The notes below the pieces were generated by a model. The model worked only from the letters and a program-made list of their open reading frames with translations, was not told the origin of the DNA and did no database searches. Position numbers and translations under genes: made by a program. Shown here piece by piece: positions 4,294-26,793 of a stretch of 28,903 nucleotides of DNA (position 1 is its first letter; every line of letters begins with the position of its first letter). The stretch is taken from contig NW_004457313.1 in assembly GCF_000313135.1 (NCBI RefSeq), positions 742,187 to 771,089 on the forward strand, read 5' to 3'. This stretch comes from Acanthamoeba castellanii str. Neff. Taxonomy: Eukaryota > Discosea > Longamoebia > Acanthamoebidae.

Positions 4294-7200
4294 ATGAGCA
4301 CTGACGACGCCTCCTCGCTCAATCCTGCGGCTGCCGATCTCGATAGCCTGGTCGCTCCGGAGGATGCCGTAGCTGCTCCCGAAGGAGAGACCAAAGGTAC
4401 TCTTGAATCCTCTGGCCTCTGCACTCCCAATTATCTCTCTCTTTCGCGCACGATTTTTGGTCAAATTTATGTGCCAATCTTAATCTTAATCTTTCCTACC
4501 TTCCTTTCCGATCGTGTTGGCTCGTCGCAGAGCTGGCGGCCTTCACCATCTCTGTGAAGACTCTGCACGGAGGGAGCGTGTCGCTGCAGGTTAGTCCTCT
4601 GGATACGGTGCAGGACGTGAGGCAGTACCTCTTTGAAACGCCGGAAGCCTCCGACCTCACCTCCTACACGCTCCTGCTCGAAGGCAAGCCCATCAACGAC
4701 TATGCCGAACTGTCCGAACTTCCTCACTTGAGGCCTGACTCCTCTTTGGTCATGGCGCCGGGTACTTTGCCCCCACCCCCTCCGGATGTCGCCCCAGTCG
4801 TATCTTGCCTCGATGCGTTGTCGCCGGAGGGCCGCCCTTTCTGACATCTGCGCGCTCCCCCCCCCCCGGTTGTGCCATCGCAGCGGCGTACAACAAGCGG
4901 ACGTCGTTGCTGCACATCAGGCGGCTTCGGGAGATTTTGAGTTTCCATCTGGTCAACTTTGCCAACACGCCCTCTCCTTCGCTCTTCTCGCACTACTGCC
5001 CCGCCGATGAAGAGGAGGAGACTCGCGAGCCTGCTGTGGCGGACCAGGGCACGGCTGCCAAGGGGAGCAAGCCCGCCGGCGGGAAGAAGAAGAACGGCGG
5101 AGCGCAAAAGCCCAAGGCTGGCGGCAACGAAAGCGGCAACAGCTCCAAGGCGGCGGCCACCACCGCCAAGGGCAAGCGCAGCGAGGATCTCGTCGACCTC
5201 AAGTCTCCCATGTCACTGCAGAGCTTCTACCCGAGCGTGAGCGCAAGCGAGCCCCAGTGCGTGAAGAGCATCGAGTTTGCTGGCTGGAACCCTCCGCCCG
5301 GCAACCGAGCCCTGTTGGGTGCGTTCTCACAGCCCCCCCCCCCGCACCACCAGCCACCACGAGCGCATTCACGATCGCCAGCCGCCGGAAAGCGCCCTTT
5401 CGAGCCCCCCCCCAAAGCGATTTTCTCCTCTCATCTCCTCTTCTCCTCTTCGCCTTTTCTTTGTGGAACGGTGTCGTGCGGTGGCTTGGGCGTGTGCAGG
5501 TGATCTCTACTACCTGCAGGTCACTACCCTCGAGGGTGCGACCATTTTCATTACTTCGTGGACCCATGGCTTCTACGTGAACTGCTGCACCGAGACGACC
5601 TTCAACCCGAAGCCCGCTCCCAAGTCCTGCTCCTCCCACAGCTTGTCGGGCGTACTGTCGCAGGTAGGATCCTCTCCGTTCCTCCGCGCCACTGCCGCGC
5701 GACTTTCGTTTTCACACACTGCACCGGTGTCACCACCTAGGTGAGCCCTCAGTTCAAGAAGAACTTCCAGCACGTGCTCAAGAGTGGCCAGTTCGGGCGC
5801 CACCCTTTCGAGCTCATGCCGGTTCCGATCCCGCTCACCCCGTGGGTGGGCCTCGACACGCCCCACGTGAACGACAAGAACCGCGCCGAATACGCTGTCC
5901 TCTACACCGAGATGGAGTACGCCTCCTTCCTCCTCTGGATCATGATCCGTCGTGCCCTTGTTCGTTTTTGAGCACGTGCCTCGCAACACGTACATTGGGG
6001 GGAGGCGAGGCAAGGGCGATGATGGCGATGGTGGCGATGATGATCATTGGCTCATGGTTATGCGCGGTGTTCGCCCGTGTATACAGCTTCGCCGGCAACA
6101 TGCGCGACTGGAACGAAGAGTATCAGGCCTGCAAAGAGTTGCCATCCGGTACCGTCCAGGAGAGAATCATCCGCGATCGTGCTGTCCTCAAGGTCCACAA
6201 CGATTTCGTTGACGCCGCCACGCGTGGCGCCATGTATGTACACCTCTTTTGACCCGTTTCCCCGTCGTGCACGGCGTTGCCCCCCCCCAATAATCTCACC
6301 TGGTGCGGATGGTGGCTGGTGGCTGGTGCATTTCAGGGCGATCGCCAATCAGGCGGTGCCTCCCATCAACCCGCACGAGGAACCCCGCATGCACCTGTTC
6401 GTCTACAACAACATCTTTTTTTCCTTCTGCTACGACCACCGCGACCCCGACTTCAAGCCGCTGCAGCCCCCGACGCCCACCACAAAGGACGCGGCCATCA
6501 AGGACGAGGACAAGGACAAATACGCCGAACAGGCCACCTACGTGTCTGCCAACAACGACCTCAAGGGCATCAGGTGGGAACACACGCCCACCACGCCTCT
6601 CCTCCCTGTTCTGCTCGCGGTGAACTGACCACCTCCACTCCTCCACCGGTGCGCGCACCCACAGGCTGTACAACGACGCCGACGTGTCTGGCCTCGGAAC
6701 AGTGCTGACAGCCGTGGTGGACTATCGCGGCTACCGACTTCTGGCGCAGAGCCTCATTCCTGGTTCGGGCTCGCCTCCAAATCCCCCCCCCTCTCTTCCA
6801 ATTACCAATTCTCCGACCCCGCGTTGGGTGCACACTACACGCGTGCTTGCTAAGCCGGTGATATGCGTCGGCGGTGTGCAGGCGTGCTGCAGAGAGAGGA
6901 GACGAACCTGGCCTACGGGTCGATGGACAACGGTAAGACCGTCCACGCCGACCCGCAGTTCCACGAGCTCATGCGCAAGGCCGCCCTGCACATGCACATC
7001 AAGGAACACGAGCTCACCGACGGATCGGGCAACACGGGTACCTGGCAGCCTCACCCCCCCACCACCACCACCACCTCCAATTCCTCCCTCGCCTTTCTTT
7101 CTGCTTCTCTCGGCCTGTGGTGCCTGCCCGCCTGCCCAACCCTCATCGTGATGTCGCTGGTGCACCGGCCTTCCAGCCCAGTTGGCGTGCCCCATCAACG

Positions 7201-9624
7201 CCAAGGGCATCGTCGGCACGGATGGACGCCGCTACCTCATCGACCTGGGCAGGGCCACTCCTCTCGACACCAACTGGAGCGATGCACCCGTTGAGACCCA
7301 GCAATCCGAGGAATCCGTACTCTCCTCAATCTCCCCCCCCCCCTCAATCTTCCCCCTCGTTCAAATGGGAGCGAAGCTGCCTCGGCAATACGCACCGGCC
7401 CTTTGGTTTGGTTTTTGGTTTGGTTTGTGTGGCAAACAACCGGTTGCGATCAGATCGCTGACGACGATCGTTCGGCCGTGTCGGTCGCCTCGTCGTCCAC
7501 ACATGGGCAGGGGCTGGTGCTGCATCCCTCGAGCGAGCCTCTTCTCCGACCCGAGCTGGTCTCGGTCTTCTGCGACGCGCTGGAACTGCGTCTCCAGCAC
7601 CAGGGAGGCGACAACCCCAACCTCACCATCGTGCTCAAGGAGGAGGCGGCCGCAGCGGAGGGCGAAAGCGCCAAGGCCACCACCATCGACCTCTCCTCGG
7701 CCGTCAAGGTCATCCACGACGAGCCCGCTACTGCCGGTTCCGAGAAGCTCGTGAGCGAGGAGGTCGAGCAACCGTCCGCCACAGTCACCAAGGAGACCAA
7801 GGAGGAGGAGGAGGAAACCGAAGCCAAGGGCCAGGCCGAGGCCGATGCGGCGGCGGCGGCGTCGGAGGAAAAGAAGGACGGCAAGCGCTACGTCATCACC
7901 ATCAACCCCAACGTGCTGCACGCCCACGCCAACTTCACGCTCACCGCCCCCAAGGAAGAAACCGAGAAGGACGAGGCCCTTGTCAAGACCCTCAGCGCCT
8001 TCCTCAAGGACAGCATCCTGCCCCGCATGGTTCGTTGTTCTCTCTTCTCTCTCTCAATTTTTATTCTTCCCCTTTGGCCCTGCGACTTGTGCTGACGCGT
8101 GTTTTCTTTTCTTTTTCTTTTGGGCGTTGGACAGGCCGAGGAGTTTGTGCACCTGCTCTCTACGCCCGTCGATGGCCAAACGCTGGCGTCGATCATGCAC
8201 AGGAACGGAATCAATCTGCGCTACCTCGGCCGCCTCGCCAACCTCTGCAAGGGCCGCCCGTTCCTCGTGGTACCCCCGCCCCGCCCCATCCACCGACAGC
8301 CACACACGACACACGACGCGCGCGACGGGAAAAAGGGGAGAACTGACCCGTGGGGGGGGGGGTCGACCCACGCGAGTGCAGCGCCTCTGCGAGCAGGAGA
8401 TGATCGTGCGCGCGGCCAAGTATGAGTTCAACCGGTATCTGCGTGAGACCGAGGACCACCTGCTGAGCTTCGCCATCTCCCACTTCCTCAATTGTCTCTT
8501 TGGCGACGCCAAGGCTCTCCCGGAGGGCGTGGACCTCCACACTTTCGAGGACGACGCCACCGCCCCGGATGGTGCGTCTGGCCATTCCAACGGAGTTGCC
8601 ACCACCACCACCGGCGGCGGCGGCGGCGGCAAGAAGAACAAGAAGAACAAGGGCAAGGGCGGCGAAACGGCGCACAAGTCGCTGGCCACTCTGCCCAAGG
8701 CCAAGATCTTCGCCCTCACCTCGCAGCAGCTGTGGCAAACCCTCCAGCAGCTTGTGCAGAAGCGGTTCGGCTACGACATCTCGCTCAAGGGCGGAGCCGT
8801 CATCCCACGGAACCCTGCCGGTACCACCTGCGCCCGCGCTCTTGCTCCCTCCATGTGCACACCTCGTCGTCGTCGTCGTCGTCGTCGTCGCATGTCTTCT
8901 CCTTCTCACTCCTCCTCCCGCCGGGTGGCAGGAGTGGACGAGGCGACGCTGAACACCCGCCAGCGACTAAGGTCGTTGGCCGGCGTGCGGTCGTTCTGCC
9001 AGAAGGTGGGCATCCAGGTCGTGGCGCGCAACTACGAGCTGTCCTTCAACGAGCCCTTCAAGCGCAGAGACATCCTCGACGTGTTCCCTCTCGTCAAGCA
9101 CCTCAACGTACACTCACCCACCTCCACCTCGATAGGGGGGGAGAGACTCACGGCAGCTGGCCGGTGCTTGTCGGGCGTGGGGGTGGGTGTGCAGCCCAAG
9201 AGCAAGGACGGGCAGCAGCTGCTGGACGCCGGCAAGGTGTTCCTGGGCCAGGGGCGTCTGGACGTGGCCTTCGAGCTGTTCAACGAGGCCCTCGCCATCT
9301 TCCACCAGGTCTACGGACCCCTCCACCCGGACACCGCTCTCTGCTACGGGTGTGTGCTCCTCTCCCTCTCCCTCTCCCTCTCCCATGGGGTGCGGATTTC
9401 TGCCGTAGCGTCTACTCATTGGTCCCCGGTGGGATGCGCGCCGCGTTGCATTGGATGAAGGAATCTCGCGATGGTGCACTACCATGCCAACGACACAGCG
9501 CAAGCTCTGGTCCACCAGAAGAAAATGGTGATCATCAATGAGCGCGTGCACGGCCTCGACCACCACGACACCGCCCACAGCTATGTACGCTCTCCCTGCC
9601 TCCCTGCCTCCCTCCCGCATTACC

Positions 9625-15604: not shown

Positions 15605-15660
15605 AGGGCCAGGTACGCGCAACGCTGCCCGCGTGGCGTGCTTAAAATTCCGCTGCTAAC

Positions 15661-15723
15661 CGCCAAAATTTTTTGGCGCGAAAAGTGTGCTTGGCGCCAA
15701 AATTTGTTCTCGTTTTTGGCGGT
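15661..15723. promoter_or_regulatory. Cluster of E2F-type elements upstream of the CKAP2-like gene
   Basis: Within about 60 bases are CGCCAAAA (15661-15668), TTTTGGCGCGAAAA (15671-15684), TTGGCGCCAAAA (15691-15702) and TTTTTGGCGG (about 15713-15722). The E2F/DP consensus is TTTSSCGC on either strand. The cluster ends about 35 bases before the ATG at 15756 and 57 bases after the stop of the preceding gene. That E2F/DP regulates this gene is inference. Confidence 0.75.
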
Positions 15724-15755
15724 GTTGTGGACGGGTTTACTATCAGAGACCAAGG

Positions 15756-18700
15756 ATGCAACAGGCCACGCGGGGAGATGGCCTCGATATCGCAGGCAAG
15801 GAGAACGCCCAGTCGACGAGCAACAAAAAGGAGCTCTCAAGAAGGGAGCAGCTAGAACTGTGGAAGCAGCAACGAAAATCCAACGACCCGACAAGCGCGA
15901 GGAGAGCGCACATTCCCGATGCGCGAAGTCTCTTACGAGCTGCCGATCAATCGAAGCCTCCCACCCGCGCCAGATCGGCACCGAAACCCGCGGTGCAGCA
16001 CCAAGAACATGCGAGGACAGCCGCTCGAAAACCGATGCAAGAGATTCCCAAGACGGCCAAGGTGGCAGAAGGCGATCCAGAGAAGACGGCCTCAGCCGCA
16101 GCCCTCATAAATCATAAGAAAACGACGATCACTGCGCCGCACGGGCACGTGGCCTCGGACACCGCAGCCGTGACCCGCGTAGAACGGCTCAAGCAGTATC
16201 GTGAGGGCCAGCAACGCATCAAGGACCACGCCGCAAGGTATGCTCTCTCCAAACTCTGTCAAGTCCTAGATCGCTCCACCTTGTGCTCTACCCCACCAAC
16301 ATGTTGCTACTCTCTTTACAGAGTCGCCGGGCCGCCGAAGAAGCAGGCGAGCAGCAGAACCGCTCAGCCTCCGAGCAAGGCCCACAGGTCGACCAACTCA
16401 AGTGGACCAGCTACGGATCTCGAGCTCCAGCGCTTTCGCAGCAAGATAGAGAAAGCGATGCGATACTCTCAGGTACTACCCGCCTTATCGGCACAAAACG
16501 ACTCTCTCCGACCAAGTCTCGATGTACCTTTGTCTCCCAGCTGGGCAAACAAGAGGAGGCGAGGGCGATCTTCAAGACTCTGCAAGGGCAGGAGCGGTTT
16601 AGTCGATTCCGTAGCACCAGCGAGTATTGGGTGGCTCTCGCTCGCTTCGAGGAGGAGTGTCAGAACTTTGCCGGTACGCACGCCATGCTGCCTTTTCAAA
16701 CGCAATCTCCGCGCGTACTCACCACCACTCAAACCACCGCCCTTGAATCCTCTCCCCCGTTACAGAGGTGATTCGTTTGCTCGATACTGCTTCGCTGGCT
16801 TGCGCCAACAAGGTGGGCTCTCCCCCCCCCTCCCTCGCAATGTCCTCAGTCTATCAGTCTTGGCGCGGAGTAAACTTACTTGGTTGCCACTTCCACGCGG
16901 TGAGCCAGGTGGAGGACTCGTTCCACCTAGGCAACGCTCTTGCCGGCTTCTTAATCCGCGTAAACGACAATTCAACGAACGCTATGCGGCCCGCGCACGA
17001 GGAGGATCAAGCCGTAATGCTCCTCCCACAGACGCCCCGCACTCCCACGCAGCAGCTTCCCAGCTCTTCCTCTGTCTCGCCGTCCCCTTTCTTCTTCAAC
17101 GAACTGGCTCCGGAGAGCGAAGAGTTCCTCTACGAATGCCTGCAGAAGGCGCGGCCGCTCGACCGATCCCAGCAGCAGCACGAGCCGAGGCCTTCCACAG
17201 CTGCCACCACCTGCAGCAGCGGGCTGTCCCCTTACCACAGGCTCCGGCAGGTGGTGGAGACCATTAGATCTTCGCCGCGCTCCGCACACCTTCCGAACAA
17301 GTCGCCAGGCCTGTCGCGGTCCATCCCGCGCTCCATCGTCCTGATGAGCCCCTACAGCTCAGCTGAGCCTCCCGCGACAACAACCCGGGCTGCGCTCAAC
17401 TTGTCCCCGACCCCGGACGCCGACAGACCAGCTGCGGACCAGCTGCCCGAGGAGGGTCTTCCTCTACCTGCGTTTGGACCATCCGAGTCCGCTTCGCCGT
17501 CGCGACGAGATAATCATCAATCCCCTCCTCCTCCTCCTCCTCCTGGCCGCGACCTTGCTGCTGCTGCCTCTACGCCCCGGCTCTCGACGAGCGTTGTCCC
17601 AGCCTCCCCTTCACCGCCGGAGCTCTCCGAGTCCTTCCACCAACTCACTTCGTCCGGCCGCAACAAGAAGCAGCTCCTTCAGTCTCCTAGCGCACCCAAG
17701 CTGACGCTGACTACACGACTCGCGCTCGGCGAGGCGTTGCCTGATGACGACCACGTCGCCCTCGACGTCGAGTCTGGCCCGTGCGTGAGTCGTGCCTGTT
17801 CTTCCAGCGCGCGTGGCATTGAGTGGGAGAAAGAACTGCCAGCAGCCACCCCCATCACCATGGATGGTACGCACACGCCTCGCGTCTGATAGACACCACC
17901 CACCCACCACGACCACATCTGAAGCGATCTTCCCTCGTCGAGTCCTTCCGCTGAATTCACTCATTCATTGGTTGTTCGACTCAGCTCACTGCAGGGCGGT
18001 GGCGCCACCATCGTCAAGCGGGCGTGCCCTCTCTCCACACTTGACCAACCCCCAGAGGGTTCTGCAGCAGCCGCTCTCGCCCTCGACAGCCACGCGACAG
18101 ACGGCCAAGAGGCGGCCGTCTTTGCCCAATGCGGCCGCGAAGACGTTCTCATCGCCTACGGTGTCCTCTTCTCAGCGAGCCGTGGCGGCGAGCGTATCGC
18201 GCTTCCCCCACCACACAGAGCGCCGGCTGGCGGCCAGCAGAGGAGATCATCTCATCCGGCTCGCTGTGCATAACCGATCCGAGCTGCGCTTCGCCACTCC
18301 GCAATCTCTTCGCCAGGCCTCCCCCCAGCGCGCGGGCATTTCTACTGCCACCACCGCGCCTGTGGAGGACGTCGACTCCAGCAGCGAGAGGACCTGCGGT
18401 ACCGCGAGCAGTCGAGGCCACCGAGAGAGCGCCCATCAGCATCACGACGACGACGATGCGGGCACGGATCTACTACTGAGCGACTTCGCCACTCTCAGCC
18501 TGTCGTCTGCTGACGTCTCCCTCTCCAGCGAGAGCGAGTCCGCTCTCAATGGTGAGGGGGAGGAGGAGGGGGAGGAGGAATCCAAACACGACCGCGCCCC
18601 GCAGCTGCCAAGCGAAGGCCAAGTGTCCCTGACCCCCCTGTTCGTCGTCAAGCCCAGAAATACGAGGTACGCCACCCACCGCGCAAACAGTTACTTGGCC

Positions 18701-19506
18701 ACGATGCAATACTAGTCCTTTACTTGTTGTGGCTAACCCTAAGGTTTGCTTTTCCGCAGGGCTTTTGTGCGGGCATCGGAGATCCAACCAACAACACCCG
18801 GATACGGCCGCTTCGACACCTACGCCCCAGTCAGGTATGAATTAACCCGTTCCTTTTATTGCTCTGCGTAACGCCCTGTTCTCTCAGTTTCTCTCTTTCA
18901 ACCAGTACAACTCTCAAAAACAATTTGCATTTCTCATCTCCCTCAAAATGCAGACGTACGAGCTCGATGCGTAACGCCGAGCTAATGGATGTGACCGTCG
19001 CACTTTCTCCGATCGGCACGCCGAGCCGGTCGATTGTGGGCACCCCCGTCAGCACTCCGGGCATCAACCCGTTGACCCCCTTTCACGGAGCGGCCGAAAG
19101 TGTATCGGGCGAGCAGGCCGAGTCATCTAGCCGCCCGTGTCAAGAGGAGCAGAAGAACGGCGGACTCACGTTCACGCCCGTTCGGCGGAGCCTACGACTG
19201 AACAACAAATCTACAACGCCAATGGCCAAGATGAACACCCCGTTCCCGTTCGGCAGGGACCGCCACCTACGAAGTAACGAGGTCAGGACTGATGCCCACC
19301 CTGAGGGCGAGGGTGCCGCCACCATCACCGCTCCAGCTGGTCAGACTGCCGCCACACCTGCGGAGACGCGCCTTCGCGTTAATACCAAGGACACGACGCC
19401 AACCGCCAAGATGAACACCCCGTTCCCGTTCGCCAGGAGACGCTTTGCCAGCAACCAGCCCGCCGTGGTGCTGCTCGCCAACCCGCATCTTACCAGCAAT
19501 CACTGA
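15756..19506 (+). CDS. CKAP2-like mitotic spindle protein with KEN box
   Basis: CKAP2 and CKAP2L are animal spindle proteins destroyed by APC/C. Eight in-phase exons give about 1026 aa: 15756-16237, 16322-16472, 16541-16673, 16766-16812, 16909-17866, 17985-18666, 18760-18834, 18954-19506. The N-terminus has a KEN box (GKENA, residues 14-18) followed by a basic, Gln-rich segment. Residues about 197-292 form a helical block: RSKIEKAMRYSQLGKQEEA, YWVALARFEEE, EVIRLLDTASLACANKVED. I recall this pattern from the CKAP2 C-terminal domain, where short helical repeats include YWICLALIE-like and EEVIALYE-like pieces. The rest is Ser/Pro-rich and disordered, with many SP/TP sites (SPIGTPSRSIVGTPVSTPG) and TFTPVRRSLRL, like the TPVRRS motif of CKAP2. 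A 28-residue segment containing TTPxAKMNTPFPF occurs twice. The domain is near the N-terminus here, unlike in animals. Start chosen at the first ATG after the E2F cluster. A BUB1/Mad3 TPR origin is a weaker alternative. Confidence 0.55.
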
Positions 19507-19582
19507 GACCCAGGCTGGTATTCTCTCTGTACAGCAAACAAAACGAATACACCCACCCGCAGCAAAGCGACGGAGTTTGACA

Positions 19583-19595
19583 TTTGGCGCCAAAA
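19583..19595. promoter_or_regulatory. Perfect E2F-type palindrome TTTGGCGCCAAAA downstream of the CKAP2-like gene
   Basis: The site lies 77 bases after the CKAP2-like stop, between two copies of CGGAGTTTGAC. No gene starts nearby on either strand, so its target, if any, is unknown. It may be part of the foldback-like element that follows. Confidence 0.45.
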
Positions 19596-19741
19596 CTGGT
19601 CGCGGAGTTTGACTAGGTTTTTTTGGGCTGAGGCACCGCGCATGACACACGCACTCACCGCACACGCTCGCGCGTACCGTAGTTGCCGCCGCTGTGAGCA
19701 AAGGCGCAGCCGGGCAGAATTTTTGTAGGAGCGCTAATGGG

Positions 19742-19935
19742 CGGAGTTTGGACTTAAATTTTTTTGCGGCCGTCACCACTCGAGCAAGATGACAGGCTTT
19801 CTCGCTTGCACAGTAAGCTCATGAGCTCGCAATAGCGTCAAAATGCGCCGCAGAGAACGGGCTTCAACATGTGATAGGATTCAGCCCTCTAGGATGCCTC
19901 ATTGGGCCGTACGAGCTGGACGTTCCCAATCACTT
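19742..19935. repeat. Left inverted arm of the foldback-like element
   Basis: Matches the reverse complement of about 21330-21558. Best-conserved pieces are the TTTCTCGCTTGCAC core near 19797-19811 and GATGCCTCATTGGGCCG at 19893-19909. Confidence 0.7.
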
Positions 19936-20060
19936 TGCGAATTATTATGTCATACAACCTAGAATTCCCTTCCGAAAACCAAGCGCATCAGTTTTCTCGC
20001 TTCCCTTGACACCTGCCAGCCTACGGGGATGCAACGAAAACGCGTAACACTCGTTAAACG

Positions 20061-20200
20061 CGTTTAACTAGTTTAACTAGTAAAACACTGATTAAACTCG
20101 TTTAACGACCTGCCCACTCGTTGAACGTGTGGGCCACTCGTGAAACGAGTGGAGAATGTGTGAAACGAGTAGAGAACGCGTGAAACGAGTAAAAACCGTT
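20061..20200. repeat. 20-bp-period minisatellite with hairpin units
   Basis: Seven units of exactly 20 bases can be stacked. The last three begin TGAAACGAGT at 20141, 20161 and 20181; earlier units are TTGAACGTGTGGGCCACTCG (20121) and TTTAACGACCTGCCCACTCG (20101). Unit junctions form hairpins, for example CCACTCGT-GAA-ACGAGTGG at 20134-20152 with perfect 8-base arms. Confidence 0.85.
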
Positions 20201-20701
20201 GCCTCGTAGGTAGGAGATGATGACGAGTAGGCATAGCACACGATTAAGATGACGATCAGACCAGCTGAGGTCAAACGAAGGAAAATTGTTCTGACTATCG
20301 GAGTTTAGACCTCTCAACTATTTCCGTATTTTCCAATCATCGGTGGAATACCTGCAAGGACCTACGCTTCCTTTGTTCTTATTAATCCTCTTTAATACAC
20401 TACATCTTCTCGCGTTGCTCGTCGCCTCCTGTTATATCCGACACTGACCTGACAGTCTCAGCAGCTGGGCGCTCCCCTTGCCTCTTTCTTTGCCCACAAT
20501 AAAATCCGATCTTTCACCAAATCGTTAGAGGTCTGCTCCAGAGCCGAAAAATGATTGTTCGATCGTTCTCGGCGCGTGGCTCGCGCGTATGTTACAGCTA
20601 GGTTTATTCAAGATCGGCGACAACTCGTATTTCAGCCATTTCAAACTGTTTTTTGCACTGCACGGCCACGAAGAAAATTGCCCTATAGAAGCTGGGGGGA
20701 T

Positions 20702-20872
20702 GAGTCGCCGGTCGCGATGTCCGCGGATGATTGCGATGTCCGCGGATAATCGCGACCTCCGCGGACATCCCGGACAGCCGGGATAATCGCGATCTCCCGC
20801 GGACTGCCTACTTATCCGCGGGAGGTCGCGATGTCCGCGGGAGATCGCGATGTCCGCGAAAACAAGCCATCC
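20702..20872. repeat. 19-bp-period minisatellite built around CCGCGG
   Basis: CCGCGG occurs at 20721, 20740, 20759, 20797, 20816 and 20835, with degenerate copies CCGGGA at 20778 and CCGCGA at 20854, so the period is exactly 19 bases throughout. A typical unit is CCGCGGATAATCGCGACCT. Units also contain the palindrome TCGCGA. There are no spacers between units and nothing coding. Confidence 0.88.
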
Positions 20873-21032
20873 CCTGGAGAACTCGTAGAATCGCGATTAT
20901 AGTGTTGTCCTTCGCTTGTCGTCCCTGCGTAGCCCACGCCTACCCGTAGCATACGCGCGACTGACGCGCGACCCACGCGTGGTCAACACCTTGACCGCTA
21001 AGCACTTTGTAGTTATGCGAAGAGCGCGCTGT

Positions 21033-21462
21033 AGAGCCCTGAGTCAGGCGCCATCTTGTAGCCCATGGTCTAATTGATATGGATATCTATTTTCAGGCCT
21101 CTAGCTATCCATGCAAGCGAGAAAACTAATCCGCTTTGTTTTCAGAAGTGATTTTACACGATTCGAGGTCAGGCGAACAGCGTGCCGCAGAGCCCTGAGA
21201 CGTGCGTCATCTTGTAGCCCGTGGTCTAATTGGTCTGGATATCATCTTGCAAGCAGCAAGCTATCGAGGCAAGCGAGAAACCGAGTGATCTTGTTAGCTT
21301 GGCGTTGGAACAATGGGACAATGGCAGCGAAACGGGGATGTTCCAGCGGCCCAATGAGGCATCCTGGAGGGCTGAGTCCTATCACATCTTGAAGCCCATG
21401 CTATGCGGCGCATTTTGAACGAAACGCGAGGCCAGGAGCTTACCGTGCAAGCGAGAAAAGTG
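21033..21462. repeat. Three diverged direct repeats beside and within the right arm
   Basis: Similar blocks begin near 21033, 21188 and 21366. Each runs from a GCCCTGAG or GGCTGAG start through CATCTTG(T/A)AGCCC to GCAAGCGAGAAA. The first two are clearly alike over about 95 bases and the third is shorter and more diverged. The inner inverted match to the left arm suggests the same unit multiplied on this side. Confidence 0.6.
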
Positions 21463-21558
21463 CACTTTTCACGCTTGAGTGGTGTCAGCAGAGCAAAAAG
21501 TTCTGAGTCAAAACTCCGCACTCTCCCGCTTCGAAAAAATTTTAAGTCAAAACTCCGG
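21330..21558. repeat. Right inverted arm of the foldback-like element
   Basis: Reads CGGCCCAATGAGGCATC at 21347-21363 and GTGCAAGCGAGAAAA at 21445-21459, both inverted relative to the left arm. It ends about 27 bases from the stop codon of the neighbouring minus-strand gene. Confidence 0.7.
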
Positions 21559-21584
21559 GACGTTAACGGTGGCGGTTGCGGCCC

Positions 21585-23486
21585 TTATTTCTTTTGCCCA
21601 AAATAAATCACTCCCTGAGGGCATTCCAGAGCAGAGGAGAGAGATTGGTGGGCTCGCAACCAGATGGGTATGCAACTTTGGGCATGCACAACCTTGTCGT
21701 GGTCTGTGGCACCTGCAGCCATTGAGATACGCCCCACCTCCACATTGATGTGCGCCAGCAACACCTGCACCATCTCCTCTCTGCTGATGGCTTGGCTTCT
21801 GTTGGTGTTGCGCGGGTTAACTAAAAAGTGATGACCGCGCATGAAGTGGGACTGGGCAGTACCGATAATGGCACACTTGTGCGTGAACAAGTGCTGATGC
21901 AATGTGGCATTCACCTGCCACCAGGTGCTGCGGTCTGCCCTCTGGTTCAACTGCCAGCTGGCCCAGTGTCCACAACCCCACCTGCTCAGTCCTTCGCAGG
22001 CACACATGACAAGCGGTTGTTTAGCAGGCACGCACCCAGAATGAGCATGTTTAGCGGCCGGGTGGGTGTACTGGGATGGCGCCAAGCCGCGGAGGAAAGC
22101 ACGGGCTCTCGCTGAAATGCGGTGGCCACGAGCATCATGCAAGTGACCCAGGTTCTGCCCTACAAAGCCTGCCAAGCCTGCAAACAGCGCCTTGTGCGGC
22201 GGACCATGTGCGTCAGAGATCTATCTAGCAATCTATCTATCTATCTATTAAAAAGTAACTCGAATGCTCAGAGGCAGAGTACCGTAAGTGATCGTGCGTG
22301 CCCAGTCTCAAGGCGAAGGTCGTCAGCGTATAGGGTTTCAAGCAACTGTGCGCACATACATACATTACATGCACCCGCTCATGAGCCATGGAGGGGGGGG
22401 GGGCTCCAGGGATGGAGGGAGAGCCAACCTGAAGGTGGGTCGCGGTGAAGCGAGAAAGGCGATGGAGCGGTGAATAGGCGCGAAGGACGTCGTTGTCGCG
22501 GAGGCGCATGGCGGGGTCCGCGTATGCCCACAGCCGCCCATAGGCTCGCGCCTCCGCGTCAGTCTGACCCTCCTCCTGCTCCTGCTCCTGCTGCTTCTCG
22601 TCTTCCTCAGCTTCCTCCGCCGGTTTCTGATCTCCTCCGAGAGTGCTGTTCGGTGGGTGGTGAAGCGCACGGGGTCCGAGTGGCAACTCCGGTGGTGGTG
22701 GTGGTGGTGGTGGAGTACGAGGATGGTGGCGATCGGTGGCGATGCAGTGCCGTTTCGGGTAGCCCCCTGCAACGGCGGTTGTGGATGGGGAGGACTTTCG
22801 CTTGAGAGCAAGGGAGCGCCTGACGCCGGCCCGTACCTCGAGAAGCGCCACCAGGGTACGCGCGTGAGCCCCCTCTCCGATGGCCCGCTGCGCCGCCCTC
22901 TGTATGCCGCGTGCGTGATTTCGCGTCAAAAAGAGAACATGTGAGGCCCTCGTGGCCAAGTGGTATGGCGCGTGCTGTGCTGGAGAGAGAGAGAGAGATG
23001 GGGATGTACGGTGCGCGTGGGAGTGATGGGCCACAGAGGCACAGGGTCGAGCCCGTGACGGGCACGGGCGGTCGGTGCGAGGATATTGGGATACCCGCAC
23101 TTGCCGCACCACGCCCAACCCTCCTCGCCGCGTTCGTTGCATGCGTCGTCGTTGCTGCCCTCTTCGCCTTCCTTCTGGGGCGGCGGGGCGCGTACCAGCG
23201 CACCGCAGCTCTCACACGGTAGGACCCAACCGCCACAGACCCCACTATTGATGCAGTGCGTGTGGGATGGGTGAGTAGGATTACGCCCATGTACGGGCGT
23301 GAGGTGAGGAGGGAGGAAAGGGGGGGGGTGATTATCAAACCATGCGAGGAAGTAGCCCACGCCAGCCTCGCCTTGCGCAGCCTGCAGGGACAGGGAAGGT
23401 GTCTCTCGTAGAGGGGTTGTCATCCCCGCCCTCTCGGGGCAGTCCACCCATGCACACACCATTCTCCGCCATCTGATTCCCTCCAT
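21585..23486 (-). CDS. Unrecognised multi-exon gene, zinc-ribbon-like N-terminus
   Basis: I do not recognise this protein. Eight exons fit with consistent phases from the ATG at 23486 to a TAA at 21585: 23486-23341, 23244-23010, 22974-22837, 22626-22429, 22345-22283, 22154-22072, 21991-21863, 21780-21585, giving about 395 aa. Residues near 49-110 carry three CxxC pairs: CGVC, CESCG and WCGKCGYPN, separated by a Glu/Asn-rich loop, which suggests a zinc-binding ribbon. Then come a helical segment (GIQRAAQRAIGEGAHARTLV), a Glu/Gln-rich charged linker, and a run of helices (RAYGRLWAYADPAMRLRDND, LLETLYADDLRLETGHARSL, EEMVQVLLAHINVEVGRISM). No signal peptide or membrane segment is seen. It is divergent from the small plus-strand gene at 23580 and convergent with the CKAP2-like gene. 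The last exon is the least certain: a donor at 21712 could shorten it. Function unknown. Confidence 0.5.
22219..22249. repeat. ATCT microsatellite
   Basis: Tandem atct units with one interruption, inside the proposed intron 22155-22282 of the minus-strand zinc-ribbon-like gene. Confidence 0.8.
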
Positions 23487-23579
23487 CAGCAGACGTGCAT
23501 GCTGGCATTAGTGTCGACGAGAAAACAAATGGCGGAGAAAAAGCCATTTTACTGCGATCGTGATTTTTTAAAATCAAAA
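23487..23579. promoter_or_regulatory. Short divergent promoter region
   Basis: Only 93 bases separate the ATG of the minus-strand zinc-ribbon-like gene from the preferred ATG of the plus-strand gene. It holds an A/T-rich block (TTTTTTAAAATC near 23564-23575). In-frame plus-strand ATGs at 23499 and 23529 fall inside it, so the boundary depends on the start used. Confidence 0.35.
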
Positions 23580-24336
23580 ATGATGATGCAGATGCTGCGG
23601 CGTAATGTGCGAGGGGGTATGTCACCGACCTGGGCTGCTGCATCGAGAGGGCTCCACGTGCATGCAAGCACTCCTCTCCTGGCTCGGCGACGCGAGTACG
23701 ATGAGGAGGCGCTCCGCGAAGCAGCTGCCGCCCTCTCCGTAGAGGGGCTCGCCAGCAACGAGGAAGAGTTGAGGTTGGCAAGGGCCGCCGTAGGCGCGCA
23801 CGATGATGCATCGGAGGAGACAAATGGCCACGGTGTCGCAGCGAGGCGGCAGCGCGAGACCGGAGCAGGTCCGGTGGTGGAGGAAGGCGAGGAAGTAGGC
23901 CACCTCAAGTGGCTGGCAGGAGAAGAGTTTGTGCTGCGCGAGATCCAACCAGGCCAACTGGCCTACGTTCGGATTCTTAAACCAGGCATTACGCCCCTCA
24001 TGGCGTTCGGACAAAAGCGTGGCAACAAGAGGAAGCGCTTTGCCTACAAGGGGCACGTCAGCCCCTACTTCCGCCTCTCGCCCAAGTCTCCCCTTTGGAA
24101 ACTCGTAATTGCCGAAAAGGACCTCATCGAGGAAGGCCGCGTACGCCATCTCTCAAATCATCTTACGAATTGGTTTTTATTTTTTTAAAAAAATCACTGA
24201 CCACAGCACCGCCTCTTTGTGTGTGTGTGTGTGTTGTATCTATGTGGTCTCTACGCAGCGCGCGCGTTTGGAGTATGAGCGGACGATGTGGCCCAAGTCG
24301 AAGAAGAAGCCGCAGAACTGGGGCGAAAATGTGTAG
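23580..24336 (+). CDS. Small basic protein with probable mitochondrial presequence
   Basis: Two exons, 23580-24140 and 24259-24336, join in phase to about 212 aa. The N-terminus MMMQMLRRNVRGGMSPTWAA is rich in Arg, Ala and Ser with no early acidic residue, as in mitochondrial presequences. An acidic, Ala-rich helix follows, then a compact C-terminal part: EFVLREIQPGQLAYVRILKP, AFGQKRGNKRKRFAYKGHVS, PYFRLSPKSPLWKLVIAEKD, and the tail WPKSKKKPQNWGENV. The small size and basic, Trp/Lys-rich tail suggest a lineage-specific mitochondrial ribosomal or assembly protein, but I do not recognise the family. ATGs at 23499 and 23529 are in frame; 23580 or 23592 gives the best presequence. The intron has a run TTTTTATTTTTTTAAAAAAA. 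Confidence 0.6.
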
Positions 24337-24411
24337 CGGAAACGCCTTTTCTTCATTTTCTTGCGAGAAGGAGAAGGATTTTTTTCGGCTTGAACGTTAG
24401 GAATTTAATGG

Positions 24412-24440
24412 TTTTGGCGCGAAAGAAAAGGCGCCAAAAA
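24412..24440. promoter_or_regulatory. Paired E2F-type elements upstream of the TACC gene
   Basis: TTTTGGCGCGAAA (24412-24424) and GGCGCCAAAAA (24430-24440) lie about 70-95 bases before the ATG at 24509. The first is the same 13-mer as in the CKAP2-like promoter cluster. Confidence 0.75.
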
Positions 24441-24508: not shown

Positions 24509-26793
24509 ATGGCCACAAGTCTTGCCCAAAACTCGGCGGTATGCACTCTTCCACTTGTTGCACCTTGCCGGGGCAAGCCACTAATTTTGATATTCATGTA
24601 TCTCCAGTTAAACGAGGGCAAAGAGAATGCTGAGCCCAATCTGCAGCAACATTCGCCTTCGCAAGCTTCTTCTTCTTCCAAAGCGCGAATGATTTCTGCC
24701 CGGCTCGCAGAGTGGAAGAAAAGGATGGGTGTGGAGCCTACTTCGGAACCGAACCCGTCGCCTTCATCCTCTGCGCGGACACCTCGCCGGGAGAATGGTG
24801 AAGACGAGCTACAGGGAGCAACGGACTTGGTGAAGGAGACTCATCCACCACATAGCACCGCCGCAAATGCTCCCGGGCAGCAGCCAGCGGGCGAACAGGA
24901 GGACCCAGCGAACGAGGCATCGGACGCCTCACTTCTCGTATTCGACTTTGGCGCGCCTTCCAAACCCACCGCACGGCCCGGGTTCGTTCCCGGCGCACAC
25001 AGCCGGCGCCTCCTCGCTGCCCGTGCTCAGAAAAAGCAGGACGAAGCCGCTCGCGTCGCTGCGGCCCAGCCCTCGGCATCGAGTACTCCTCTTACTCCTA
25101 CTCCTACTCCTACTCCTACTAGCACGGTGGACCTCCCCTCCACGCACGCCCTCTCGGACGATGGTGTCAGCAGCAGCGGCACTGGAAGCGACAAAGAGAG
25201 CAGCTCCTTCCGGACCCAGCCTCTTCATCCTACTCCCATCGAGACGCACCCCAAGCAGCTCTTAAGGTGACCCCCTTCCTCCCCCCCCCCGCTGGCGGGC
25301 TCTCACCTCAACGATTTCTTTTTCTGTCCACCCATTCACTGCGTAGTGCGGAGGAAGACTCGACTCTGGAGCCTAAGGCGCCCGCACCCGCTGCAACCAT
25401 CGCTGTCGAGCACAACACCGACCGCCCGATCGATAATGCGGGCGCCTTTGTGCCCTCGGCCGTCCACGTTTCTAGCCCGCCGAGTTCTGAGCCGGAGGAG
25501 CGCGGGCTTTTGACATCGGGCCACGTGGCGTCCGCATTTGGTATGATCACCATCAGACAGCTCGCCACTGCATCGTGTAGCTTATCGTGTGTTGTTTGTA
25601 CCACTACTTGTATTCCACGCCTCGTTTCGCTCGGTTTGCCCTACACACACCAGACATGCACGGCGGAGCCCTTGTTGCGGCGAGTGTCCATGATACGCAT
25701 CCCCTGCCAACCCTCGGAGATGTGGTGGATGACGCATTCGACCTGGACCTCTCCATGTGCGAGGACACTCTGCCTGCAGCGCCGTCGCCCGAAGAGAATC
25801 GCCAGGCCAGCATGGTGGCGCCACCATCTCCTCGGGAGGGCACGGAGAGCCGGGGCGGCGAAGCAGCAGCTCCCCTCCTCCTCCAAGCACAGCAGGCCAG
25901 GGAATGGGAACTACGCTACCGTGAGGAGCACACGAAGCTGGAGTCAGTGCAAGCGCTCTTGCGCGAATACGAAAGGGATCTCGAGCTCGTGCTGCGCCAG
26001 CACGAGCAGTTTGAGCACGAGCAGCGACTCCGCCTCCAAGGCGAGATGGAGGTAGGGCGCCCCTTCTCGTCTCTGCATTCTTCGCCTCAGCTCATTCCGC
26101 TGTGTGTGTGTGTGTGTTGTGTGGTGGCGGCGGCGGCTGGCGGTGGTGGCTGGTGGTATGGCCGGTCGCGCGGTTACTCAGCTGGGCGAGTTGAAGGCGG
26201 AGCTGGAGGGCATCACCGATTCGTTTGCGGACATCAAGCGGCGGTACGACGAAGCCAAGAACCTCAACGAAAGCTTGCGAAAGAACGAAGGCACGCTGGT
26301 GGAGGCTCTGCACAAAGCCGAGGAAGCTCGCGATGAGGCCGAGGCCCGCTTCGAGGCCCTGCGCGCGCACGCCGAGGAGAAGCTCGCCATCGCGGCGTCG
26401 GAAGTACAGAAGGTCTCCGAGGCGAGCCTGCAGGCTGAGTCGTCCCGACAGGCGTTGGACGCCGCTCTCGAGGAACAGAGCAAGCTCGCTGCGTTCTGGC
26501 AGGCGCGCGCCCTCATCGCCGAAGCTAAGCTGCCCGGGCTCACCCAGGCCATCGCCTCCAAGGAGCGGGAGAACCAGGAGCTGCTCGCCATCTGCGACCA
26601 GCTCGTCGCCTCCCTCCAGCCCCTCGGAGGAGAGGGTGGCAGCAGCAGCGGCGGCGGTGCCACCGCAGTGGTGGCGGCACCTCCCCCCCACAGCAGCTTC
26701 GAAGCCTCTCCCCACCACCCGACGCCCACCCCTGCAGGGGGAGGAAGGTCCGAGGATGACCCTAGCCCGTCATCGTCGTCTCTTCTCGCCTGA
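24509..26793 (+). CDS. TACC-domain protein (transforming acidic coiled-coil)
   Basis: TACC proteins act at spindle poles and microtubule plus ends, usually with an XMAP215/chTOG polymerase. Five in-phase exons give about 630 aa: 24509-24538, 24608-25266, 25347-25540, 25654-26051, 26182-26793. A KEN box (GKENA, residues 14-18) lies near the start, followed by a Ser/Pro/Thr-rich disordered region. A first coiled coil covers about 370-425 (EWELRYREEHTKLESVQALL). The TACC domain fills about 440-573: FADIKRRYDEAKNLNESLRK, ALRAHAEEKLAIAASEVQKV and KERENQELLAICDQLVASL match the family hallmarks (RY..LK..NE, ALK.HAEEKL, KENEEL..ICDELI). The tail is low complexity. The first exon is only 30 bases. The 3' end converges on the Vps18 gene 103 bases away. 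Confidence 0.85.

What the first reader, a model, noticed from the sequence alone, without database searches (positions are those of the whole stretch)
15661..24440. Two spindle-protein genes share E2F-type promoter modules
The CKAP2-like gene (sites 15661-15723) and the TACC gene (24412-24440) both have the 13-mer TTTTGGCGCGAAA paired with a GGCGCCAAAA-type element within about 100 bases of the ATG. TTTSSCGC is the established E2F/DP consensus. The other genes in the window lack such pairs. This suggests G1/S or mitotic co-regulation of spindle genes in an amoebozoan by a promoter code like that of animals and plants.
Basis: partly seen in the sequence, partly recalled or inferred. Interest (0 to 1): 0.75.

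Follow-up and report, generated by a model that had tools for sequence, protein, structure and literature searches.

The report
E2F sites before amoeba division genes
Two cell-division genes lying close together in the soil amoeba Acanthamoeba castellanii carry the same paired E2F switch sites in front of them, and the same site occurs 67 times in the genome, mostly just ahead of genes and more often than expected ahead of cell-division genes, so this looks like the ordinary ancient E2F control system at work in a branch of life where it has hardly been mapped.

Summary
TTTTGGCGCGAAA lies 72 bp before the ATG of the CKAP2-like gene and 84 bp before that of the TACC gene, each with a second E2F-type element 14-18 bp away. 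The genome has 67 copies; the reversed pattern has 0 and 1.6-2.9 are expected. Of 23 copies on gene models, 18 lie within 400 bp upstream of a start and none in coding sequence (random 14%, 52%). A second element accompanies 12 of 34 copies and 7 of 20 held-out loci (21 of 736 control windows), usually 13-24 bp away. Adjacent genes carry KEN boxes more often than neighbours (7/26 against 1/58; 0/6 in later loci) and include ORC1, EXO1, a CDK1/2-type kinase, TPX2, beta-tubulin, two kinesins, an SMC and a cyclin. Mitochondrial carriers: 0/50. E2F, DP and Rb genes are present. Best reading: an ordinary E2F/DP(-Rb) regulon for S-phase and mitotic genes, as in Dictyostelium. Not spindle-specific; some adjacent genes look unrelated to division; binding and expression are untested. 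A MYB co-element did not replicate.

The parts
15660..15668 (-). E2F-type half site CCGCCAAAA (TTTTGGCGG on - strand)
   Evidence: read; counted as a second element 16 bp from the 13-mer centre
15671..15683 (+). 13-mer TTTTGGCGCGAAA, containing the full palindromic E2F/DP form TTTSGCGCSAAA
15693..15702 (-). second E2F element GGCGCCAAAA, centre 18 bp from the 13-mer centre
15713..15722 (+). fourth E2F-type half site TTTTTGGCGG
15756..19506 (+). CKAP2-like gene, model of 8 exons (15756-16237, 16322-16472, 16541-16673, 16766-16812, 16909-17780, 17995-18666, 18760-18834, 18954-19506), 994 aa, KEN box near the N-terminus (GKENAQ)
   Evidence: spliced open frame; weak CKAP2_C match
24412..24424 (+). 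13-mer TTTTGGCGCGAAA
24430..24439 (-). second E2F element GGCGCCAAAA, centre 14 bp from the 13-mer centre
24509..26793 (+). TACC gene: N-terminus with KEN box (GKENAEP), C-terminal TACC coiled coil 26182-26790; first and middle exon boundaries not settled (four variants of the first intron fit)
19583..19594 (.). orphan E2F palindrome TTTGGCGCCAAA, 76 bp after the CKAP2-like stop codon, not near a recognised start

Best explanation
The elements are binding sites of the amoeba's own E2F/DP heterodimer, placed just upstream of the start codon, in about a third of cases as two sites, mostly 13-24 bp apart. They place both genes in a genome-wide E2F(-Rb) regulon that covers DNA replication and repair, chromatin, cell-cycle control and mitotic spindle genes. 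Probable working, inferred: Rb-bound E2F/DP keeps the genes low, and CDK activity releases a wave of expression. Acanthamoeba is reported to lack a substantial G1, so S-phase and mitotic genes may rise in one wave, as in Dictyostelium. Shown here: the sequence, genome-wide excess, promoter position, pairing and spacing, enrichment near cell-cycle genes, presence of E2F, DP and Rb genes. Not shown: binding, repression or activation, periodic expression.
For:: 67 copies against 0 of the reversed pattern; 1.6-2.9 expected under Markov models of order 1-3. TTTSGCGCSAAA 101 places against 3; 18 of 23 copies within 400 bp upstream of a predicted start (random 14.1%), 0 of 23 in coding sequence (random 52.3%); a second element within 60 bp at 12 of 34 copies and at 7 of 20 held-out loci, against 21 of 736 control windows; 17 of 22 spacings within 13-24 bp. 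KEN box in 7 of 26 motif-proximal genes against 1 of 58 neighbours (p 9e-4); 13-mer within 1.5 kb upstream of the first detected exon of 4 of 28 kinesin/MCM/SMC/cyclin genes, 0 of 50 mitochondrial carriers (p 0.014); 5 of 6 MCM genes have other E2F-type sites upstream, 4 as pairs 14-20 bp apart, against 2 of 39 and 0 of 39 neighbour promoters. E2F (RRIYDITNVLEG, marked box) and DP; Rb A-box exons; the E2F gene has TTTTGGCGCGAGA (one mismatch) 168 bp before an in-frame upstream ATG.
Against: No binding or expression data. 0 of 6 MCM genes carry the exact 13-mer; by eye, 0 of 2 B-family DNA polymerase genes and 1 of 4 tubulin genes do. Motif-proximal genes include ones with no evident link to the cell cycle: M48 peptidase, AhpC/TSA peroxiredoxin, carbon-nitrogen hydrolase, glutamate dehydrogenase (on the far side of the beta-tubulin site), IPP transferase, RlaP-like. 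None of 6 further proximal models of 100 aa or more from later, partly cut loci had KEN, so 7 of 32 overall. The KEN permutation NEK was also higher near sites (4 against 0 occurrences), and a D-box-like pattern was not enriched (9 of 26 against 13 of 58, p 0.18). Gene models come from a self-trained finder, not from transcripts; three of the 58 'neighbours' are in truth pieces of target genes (CKAP2-like, TACC, ORC1). MCM upstream stretches were longer (1.1-2.1 kb, two joined-end stretches for four of the genes) than the 400 bp used for neighbours, and not every MCM start is located. Kinesin, SMC and cyclin cases came from targeted searches.
Confidence: 0.82

Rival explanations
1. The sites are bound by another GCGC/CGCGAAA-binding factor (for example a KilA-N/APSES-type protein like fungal SBF), and E2F is not the main reader.
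For: The 13-mer contains CGCGAAA, and PMC4862756 (passages read) notes that the SBF site CGCGAA overlaps the E2F consensus.
Against: The palindromic form TTTSGCGCSAAA (101 places against 3) is the form expected of an E2F/DP dimer (recalled); E2F and DP with canonical DNA-binding domains are present; the same paper found SBF only in fungi. KilA-N proteins were not searched in this genome.
Confidence: 0.07
2. A general promoter or replication-origin element with no cell-cycle meaning that happens to precede these genes.
For: Several adjacent genes are metabolic; the sequence sits at promoters in general.
Against: 0 of 50 mitochondrial carrier genes and 2 of 39 neighbour promoters with any E2F-like element; KEN-box and cell-cycle family enrichment.
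Confidence: 0.08
3. E2F sites combined with a MYB element (YAACGG, like plant MSA) form a DREAM/MMB-type code at mitotic genes (an extension of the best explanation).
For: In the first 33 sites YAACGG lay within 100 bp in 15 of 33 against 24 of 317 flanking windows and 6 of 42 control promoters.
Against: The hypothesis, written down beforehand, failed on held-out sites: 4 of 20, p 0.41 against control promoters and 0.07 against flanks.
Confidence: 0.06
4. Copies of a repeat or transposon carrying the 13-mer.
For: An orphan E2F palindrome lies beside a foldback element in the window.
Against: Among the flanks of the 55 copies read, no two different loci share similar sequence at E 1e-3.
Confidence: 0.01

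Closest known systems
Dictyostelium RblA/E2F/DP network (PMC3386910; passages read)
   Same: Amoebozoan; the Rb orthologue represses S-phase and mitotic genes, including seven mitotic kinesins, condensins and spindle genes; E2F and DP genes present.
   Different: That work is expression in an rblA mutant; in its main text 'motif' and 'binding site' do not occur and 'consensus' occurs once, for a transposon. Here the cis-elements are mapped by sequence and expression is untested.
Animal and plant E2F/DP-Rb regulons (from general knowledge)
   Same: TTTSSCGC sites close to the start of replication, repair and some mitotic genes; E2F with marked box; DP partner; pocket protein.
   Different: Here the long palindrome is also found at spindle genes, and pairs prefer 13-24 bp. 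Whether animal and plant pairs share this spacing was not checked.
Fungal SBF/MBF
   Same: CGCGAAA core overlaps the 13-mer.
   Different: Unrelated proteins, found only in fungi in PMC4862756 (passages read).

Membership tests
E2F/DP-Rb cell-cycle regulon | TTTSSCGC-type sites close upstream of start codons | tested here: met
   18 of 23 copies of the 13-mer within 400 bp upstream of a predicted start
E2F/DP-Rb cell-cycle regulon | E2F protein with winged-helix DNA-binding and marked-box domains | tested here: met
   PF02319 64.5 bits, PF16421 110.6 bits; E2F4/E2F5 chains
E2F/DP-Rb cell-cycle regulon | DP partner | tested here: met
   PF08781 92.5 bits; DP-2 chain 1cf7_B E 1.6e-31
E2F/DP-Rb cell-cycle regulon | Rb pocket protein | tested here: met
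   three of four RB_A exons over the cut-off at C24; RB_B not searched
E2F/DP-Rb cell-cycle regulon | Sites enriched at cell-cycle genes | tested here: met
   4 of 28 against 0 of 50 family members genome-wide; KEN 7/26 against 1/58 in 20 loci and the window, 0 of 6 in later loci; moderate strength
E2F/DP-Rb cell-cycle regulon | Canonical S-phase targets (MCM) carry sites | tested here: met
   0 of 6 with the exact 13-mer; 5 of 6 with other E2F-type sites in the upstream stretches read, 4 as pairs; starts not all located
E2F/DP-Rb cell-cycle regulon | E2F binds the sites | not testable with these tools
   needs ChIP or EMSA
E2F/DP-Rb cell-cycle regulon | Target genes oscillate in the cell cycle | not testable with these tools
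   no expression data held
TACC family (gene 2) | C-terminal TACC coiled-coil domain | tested here: met
   PF05010 55.4 bits, cut-off 29.9; all 6 homologues listed carry PF05010
CKAP2 family (gene 1) | CKAP2_C domain above the curated cut-off | tested here: inconclusive
   14.2 bits at residues 238-274, cut-off 27, E 0.026; a TPVRRS motif near the C-terminus resembles CKAP2/CKAP2L from recall only
DREAM/MMB-type E2F plus MYB promoters | MYB element beside the E2F site | tested here: inconclusive
   15 of 33 in the first set, 4 of 20 held out
Fungal SBF-type regulon | KilA-N/APSES factor in the genome | not tested
   no search spent on it

The most novel reading that the evidence does not exclude
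In an amoeba without a substantial G1, E2F/DP works as a direct mitosis-and-spindle regulator as much as an S-phase one: the strongest palindromic sites stand before APC/C substrates and spindle genes, S-phase MCM genes have weaker paired sites, and a two-site module with 13-24 bp spacing is the functional unit. If so, direct E2F control of mitosis, without a separate MYB/FOXM1-type G2/M step, could be an old eukaryotic state.
Probability: 0.25. Interest if true: 0.65.

Novelty: new member of a known kind. Interest (0 to 1): 0.42.

Why it matters
It gives a short, checkable list of probable E2F target genes in a free-living amoebozoan (some strains of the genus infect people), in a lineage said to lack a substantial G1. 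That makes it possible to test, with reporters or ChIP, whether E2F originally governed both DNA replication and mitosis. The promoter pair with 13-24 bp spacing is a concrete, falsifiable promoter rule.

Tried and rejected
MYB/MSA co-element: enriched in the first 33 sites, noted as a hypothesis before new data, not replicated in 20 held-out loci; kept only as a weak rival. Repeat-borne motif: rejected, flanks unrelated. Viral-contig scan for the motif: considered and not run, since chance matches to a 14-mer in such a collection would swamp it. Spindle-only reading: rejected, since genes beside sites include ORC1, EXO1, a PIF1-like helicase, a CDK1/2-type kinase, a chromodomain and an SNF2 protein. 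Functional sorting of the genes beside the sites was not blind, so the KEN box and whole-family searches are given more weight. Pfam control scans took one exon each from 50 of the 58 control gene models; they showed an RPA_C gene, a polynucleotide kinase 3' phosphatase and a Cdc6_C exon (probably the ORC1 gene itself, split by my finder), so cell-cycle genes are not absent among neighbours.

Papers: searches (listings and abstract starts seen). Passages only were read of PMC3386910, PMC10113681, PMC4862756, PMC7098662 and PMC4758236. No described E2F target set of Acanthamoeba was seen in those listings; the library holds only part of the literature.
Full report
WHAT IS THERE. The window lies in contig C207 of a 38.4 Mb, 250-contig genome. 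The DP gene of the same genome is 96% identical to a protein that a source names as from Acanthamoeba castellanii, on a contig of identical length, 284,582 bases, so this is almost certainly Acanthamoeba castellanii, an amoebozoan. The exact 13-mer TTTTGGCGCGAAA occurs at 15671-15683 and 24412-24424, with GGCGCCAAAA partners at 15693-15702 and 24430-24439. Gene 1 also has half sites at 15660-15668 and 15713-15722. The 13-mer ends 72 and 84 bp before the start codons. TTTSSCGC by itself is not remarkable in the window (11 against 5.8 expected, 5 of 100 shuffles as high); the long form is (7 against 0.57 with up to 2 mismatches).

THE TWO GENES. Gene 2 is a TACC protein (PF05010, 55.4 bits; the six homologues listed all carry PF05010). 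Gene 1 could be spliced into a 994-residue frame with eight exons; its match to CKAP2_C is below the cut-off (14.2 bits, E 0.026), so 'CKAP2-like' stays a suggestion. Only two relatives turned up, unnamed. Both proteins have a KEN box, the APC/C degron, near the N-terminus.

GENOME-WIDE. The 13-mer has 67 copies; the reversed pattern has none; Markov models trained on 223 kb predict 1.6-2.9. TTTSGCGCSAAA has 101 places against 3. I read 55 of the 67 copies: 2 in the window, 21 in L012-L031, 2 beside kinesin genes, 9 in L048-L055 and 21 in L056-L075. No two different loci share flanks at E 1e-3, so this is not a repeat.

POSITION AND PAIRING. On gene models from a self-trained finder, 18 of 23 copies lie within 400 bp upstream of a start, 1 in an intron, 4 elsewhere and none in coding sequence; random positions give 14.1% upstream and 52.3% coding. 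A second E2F-like element lies within 60 bp of 12 of 34 copies, against 21 of 736 control windows. In 20 held-out loci it was 7. Spacing between centres is 13-24 bp in 11 of 15 and 6 of 7 cases; a 14-22 bp rule taken from the first set holds for 8 of 11 in held-out plus MCM pairs (p 5e-5 against a uniform spread). So pairing is real but affects about a third of copies.

WHICH GENES. Near the 21 copies of L012-L031: ORC1, EXO1, a CDK1/2-type kinase, TPX2, beta-tubulin, tubulin cofactor A and a formin with a KEN box, a chromodomain protein (24.9 bits, just under the cut-off) and an SNF2 protein with a KEN box, SAP-domain, kinase and unnamed proteins with KEN boxes. Others: a PIF1-like helicase; two kinesins (the best-matching structure chains, suggest kinesin-6-like and kinesin-14-like, but those subfamily labels rest on recall); an SMC gene and a cyclin gene. 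Against: M48 peptidase, carbon-nitrogen hydrolase, peroxiredoxin, glutamate dehydrogenase, IPP transferase and RlaP-like proteins, and several unidentified. KEN boxes: 7 of 26 proximal genes, 1 of 58 neighbours (p 9e-4). Of the other orders of K, E, N, NEK occurred 4 times against 0; the rest were 5 against 5, 0 against 1, 1 against 1 and 1 against 0; a D-box-like pattern was not enriched (9/26 against 13/58). None of 6 further proximal models from later loci had KEN. Three of the 58 neighbours are pieces of the CKAP2-like, TACC and ORC1 genes, which works against the test. Families: kinesin 2 of 12, SMC 1 of 3, cyclin 1 of 7, MCM 0 of 6, mitochondrial carriers 0 of 50 (pooled 4 of 28 against 0 of 50, p 0.014). 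By eye, tubulin 1 of 4 and B-family DNA polymerase 0 of 2. MCM genes carry other E2F-type sites: 5 of 6, four as pairs 14-20 bp apart, against 2 of 39 and 0 of 39 neighbour promoters (the MCM stretches were longer and not all starts are located).

READER PROTEINS. E2F: recognition helix RRIYDITNVLEG (read), coiled coil/marked box, and a C-terminal DYF..ESEGICDFF stretch that resembles the Rb-binding motif of animal E2Fs from recall only. DP: both domains. Rb: A-box exons. The E2F gene has TTTTGGCGCGAGA 168 bp before an in-frame upstream ATG (the finder itself chose a later ATG), and DP has one TTTCCCGC site some 440 bp upstream of its predicted start, suggesting feedback.

HOW IT LIKELY WORKS. 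E2F/DP bound just upstream of the start, in a third of cases at two sites mostly one to two helical turns apart, with Rb as the brake. Dictyostelium RblA represses S-phase and mitotic genes, including seven mitotic kinesins, at one point of the cycle, and that paper cites older work that Acanthamoeba lacks a substantial G1 (PMC3386910, passages). The same logic fits here; it remains inference. Conservation of E2F/Rb regulators in Amoebozoa is stated in PMC4758236 and PMC4862756 (passages).

VERDICT. Real, well above chance, and most simply an E2F regulon: a new member of a known kind. Its useful novelty is the mapped candidate target list and the spacing rule, not the idea of E2F in an amoeba. 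The MYB lead was tested on fresh sites and failed.

Noticed in passing
window 19718-21542: Non-coding foldback element of about 1.8 kb with inverted terminal arms (198 nt, 78% in BLAST; 112 nt core at 86%) and inner arrays of short palindromic repeats (20701-20877 and 20037-20190), after the CKAP2-like gene; no similar copy among the loci held.
   Followed up: partly
window 19583-19594: Orphan full E2F palindrome TTTGGCGCCAAA beside that element, 76 bp after a stop codon; the 20-mer reaching into it has one exact copy in the genome.
   Followed up: partly
window 4294-9458: Gene with an eIF3_p135 (CLU-type) domain; ordinary.
   Followed up: no
window 23499-24336: Gene between the two spindle genes, no Pfam match for its first exon; its stop is 172 bp before the TACC start, so the TACC promoter is short.
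   Followed up: no
L009 387-435: The E2F gene's own upstream region holds a near-perfect 13-mer and a second E2F-type site 37 bp apart, suggesting self-regulation.
   Followed up: partly
L018 4891-7303 and the gene beside the site in L021: Two E2F-site genes whose products share weak N-terminal similarity (E 0.001-0.003); the L018 one has a SAP domain and a KEN box. Possible small unnamed family.
   Followed up: partly
L029 3588 and 6088: Two 13-mers 2.5 kb apart in opposite orientation around poorly modelled genes.
   Followed up: no
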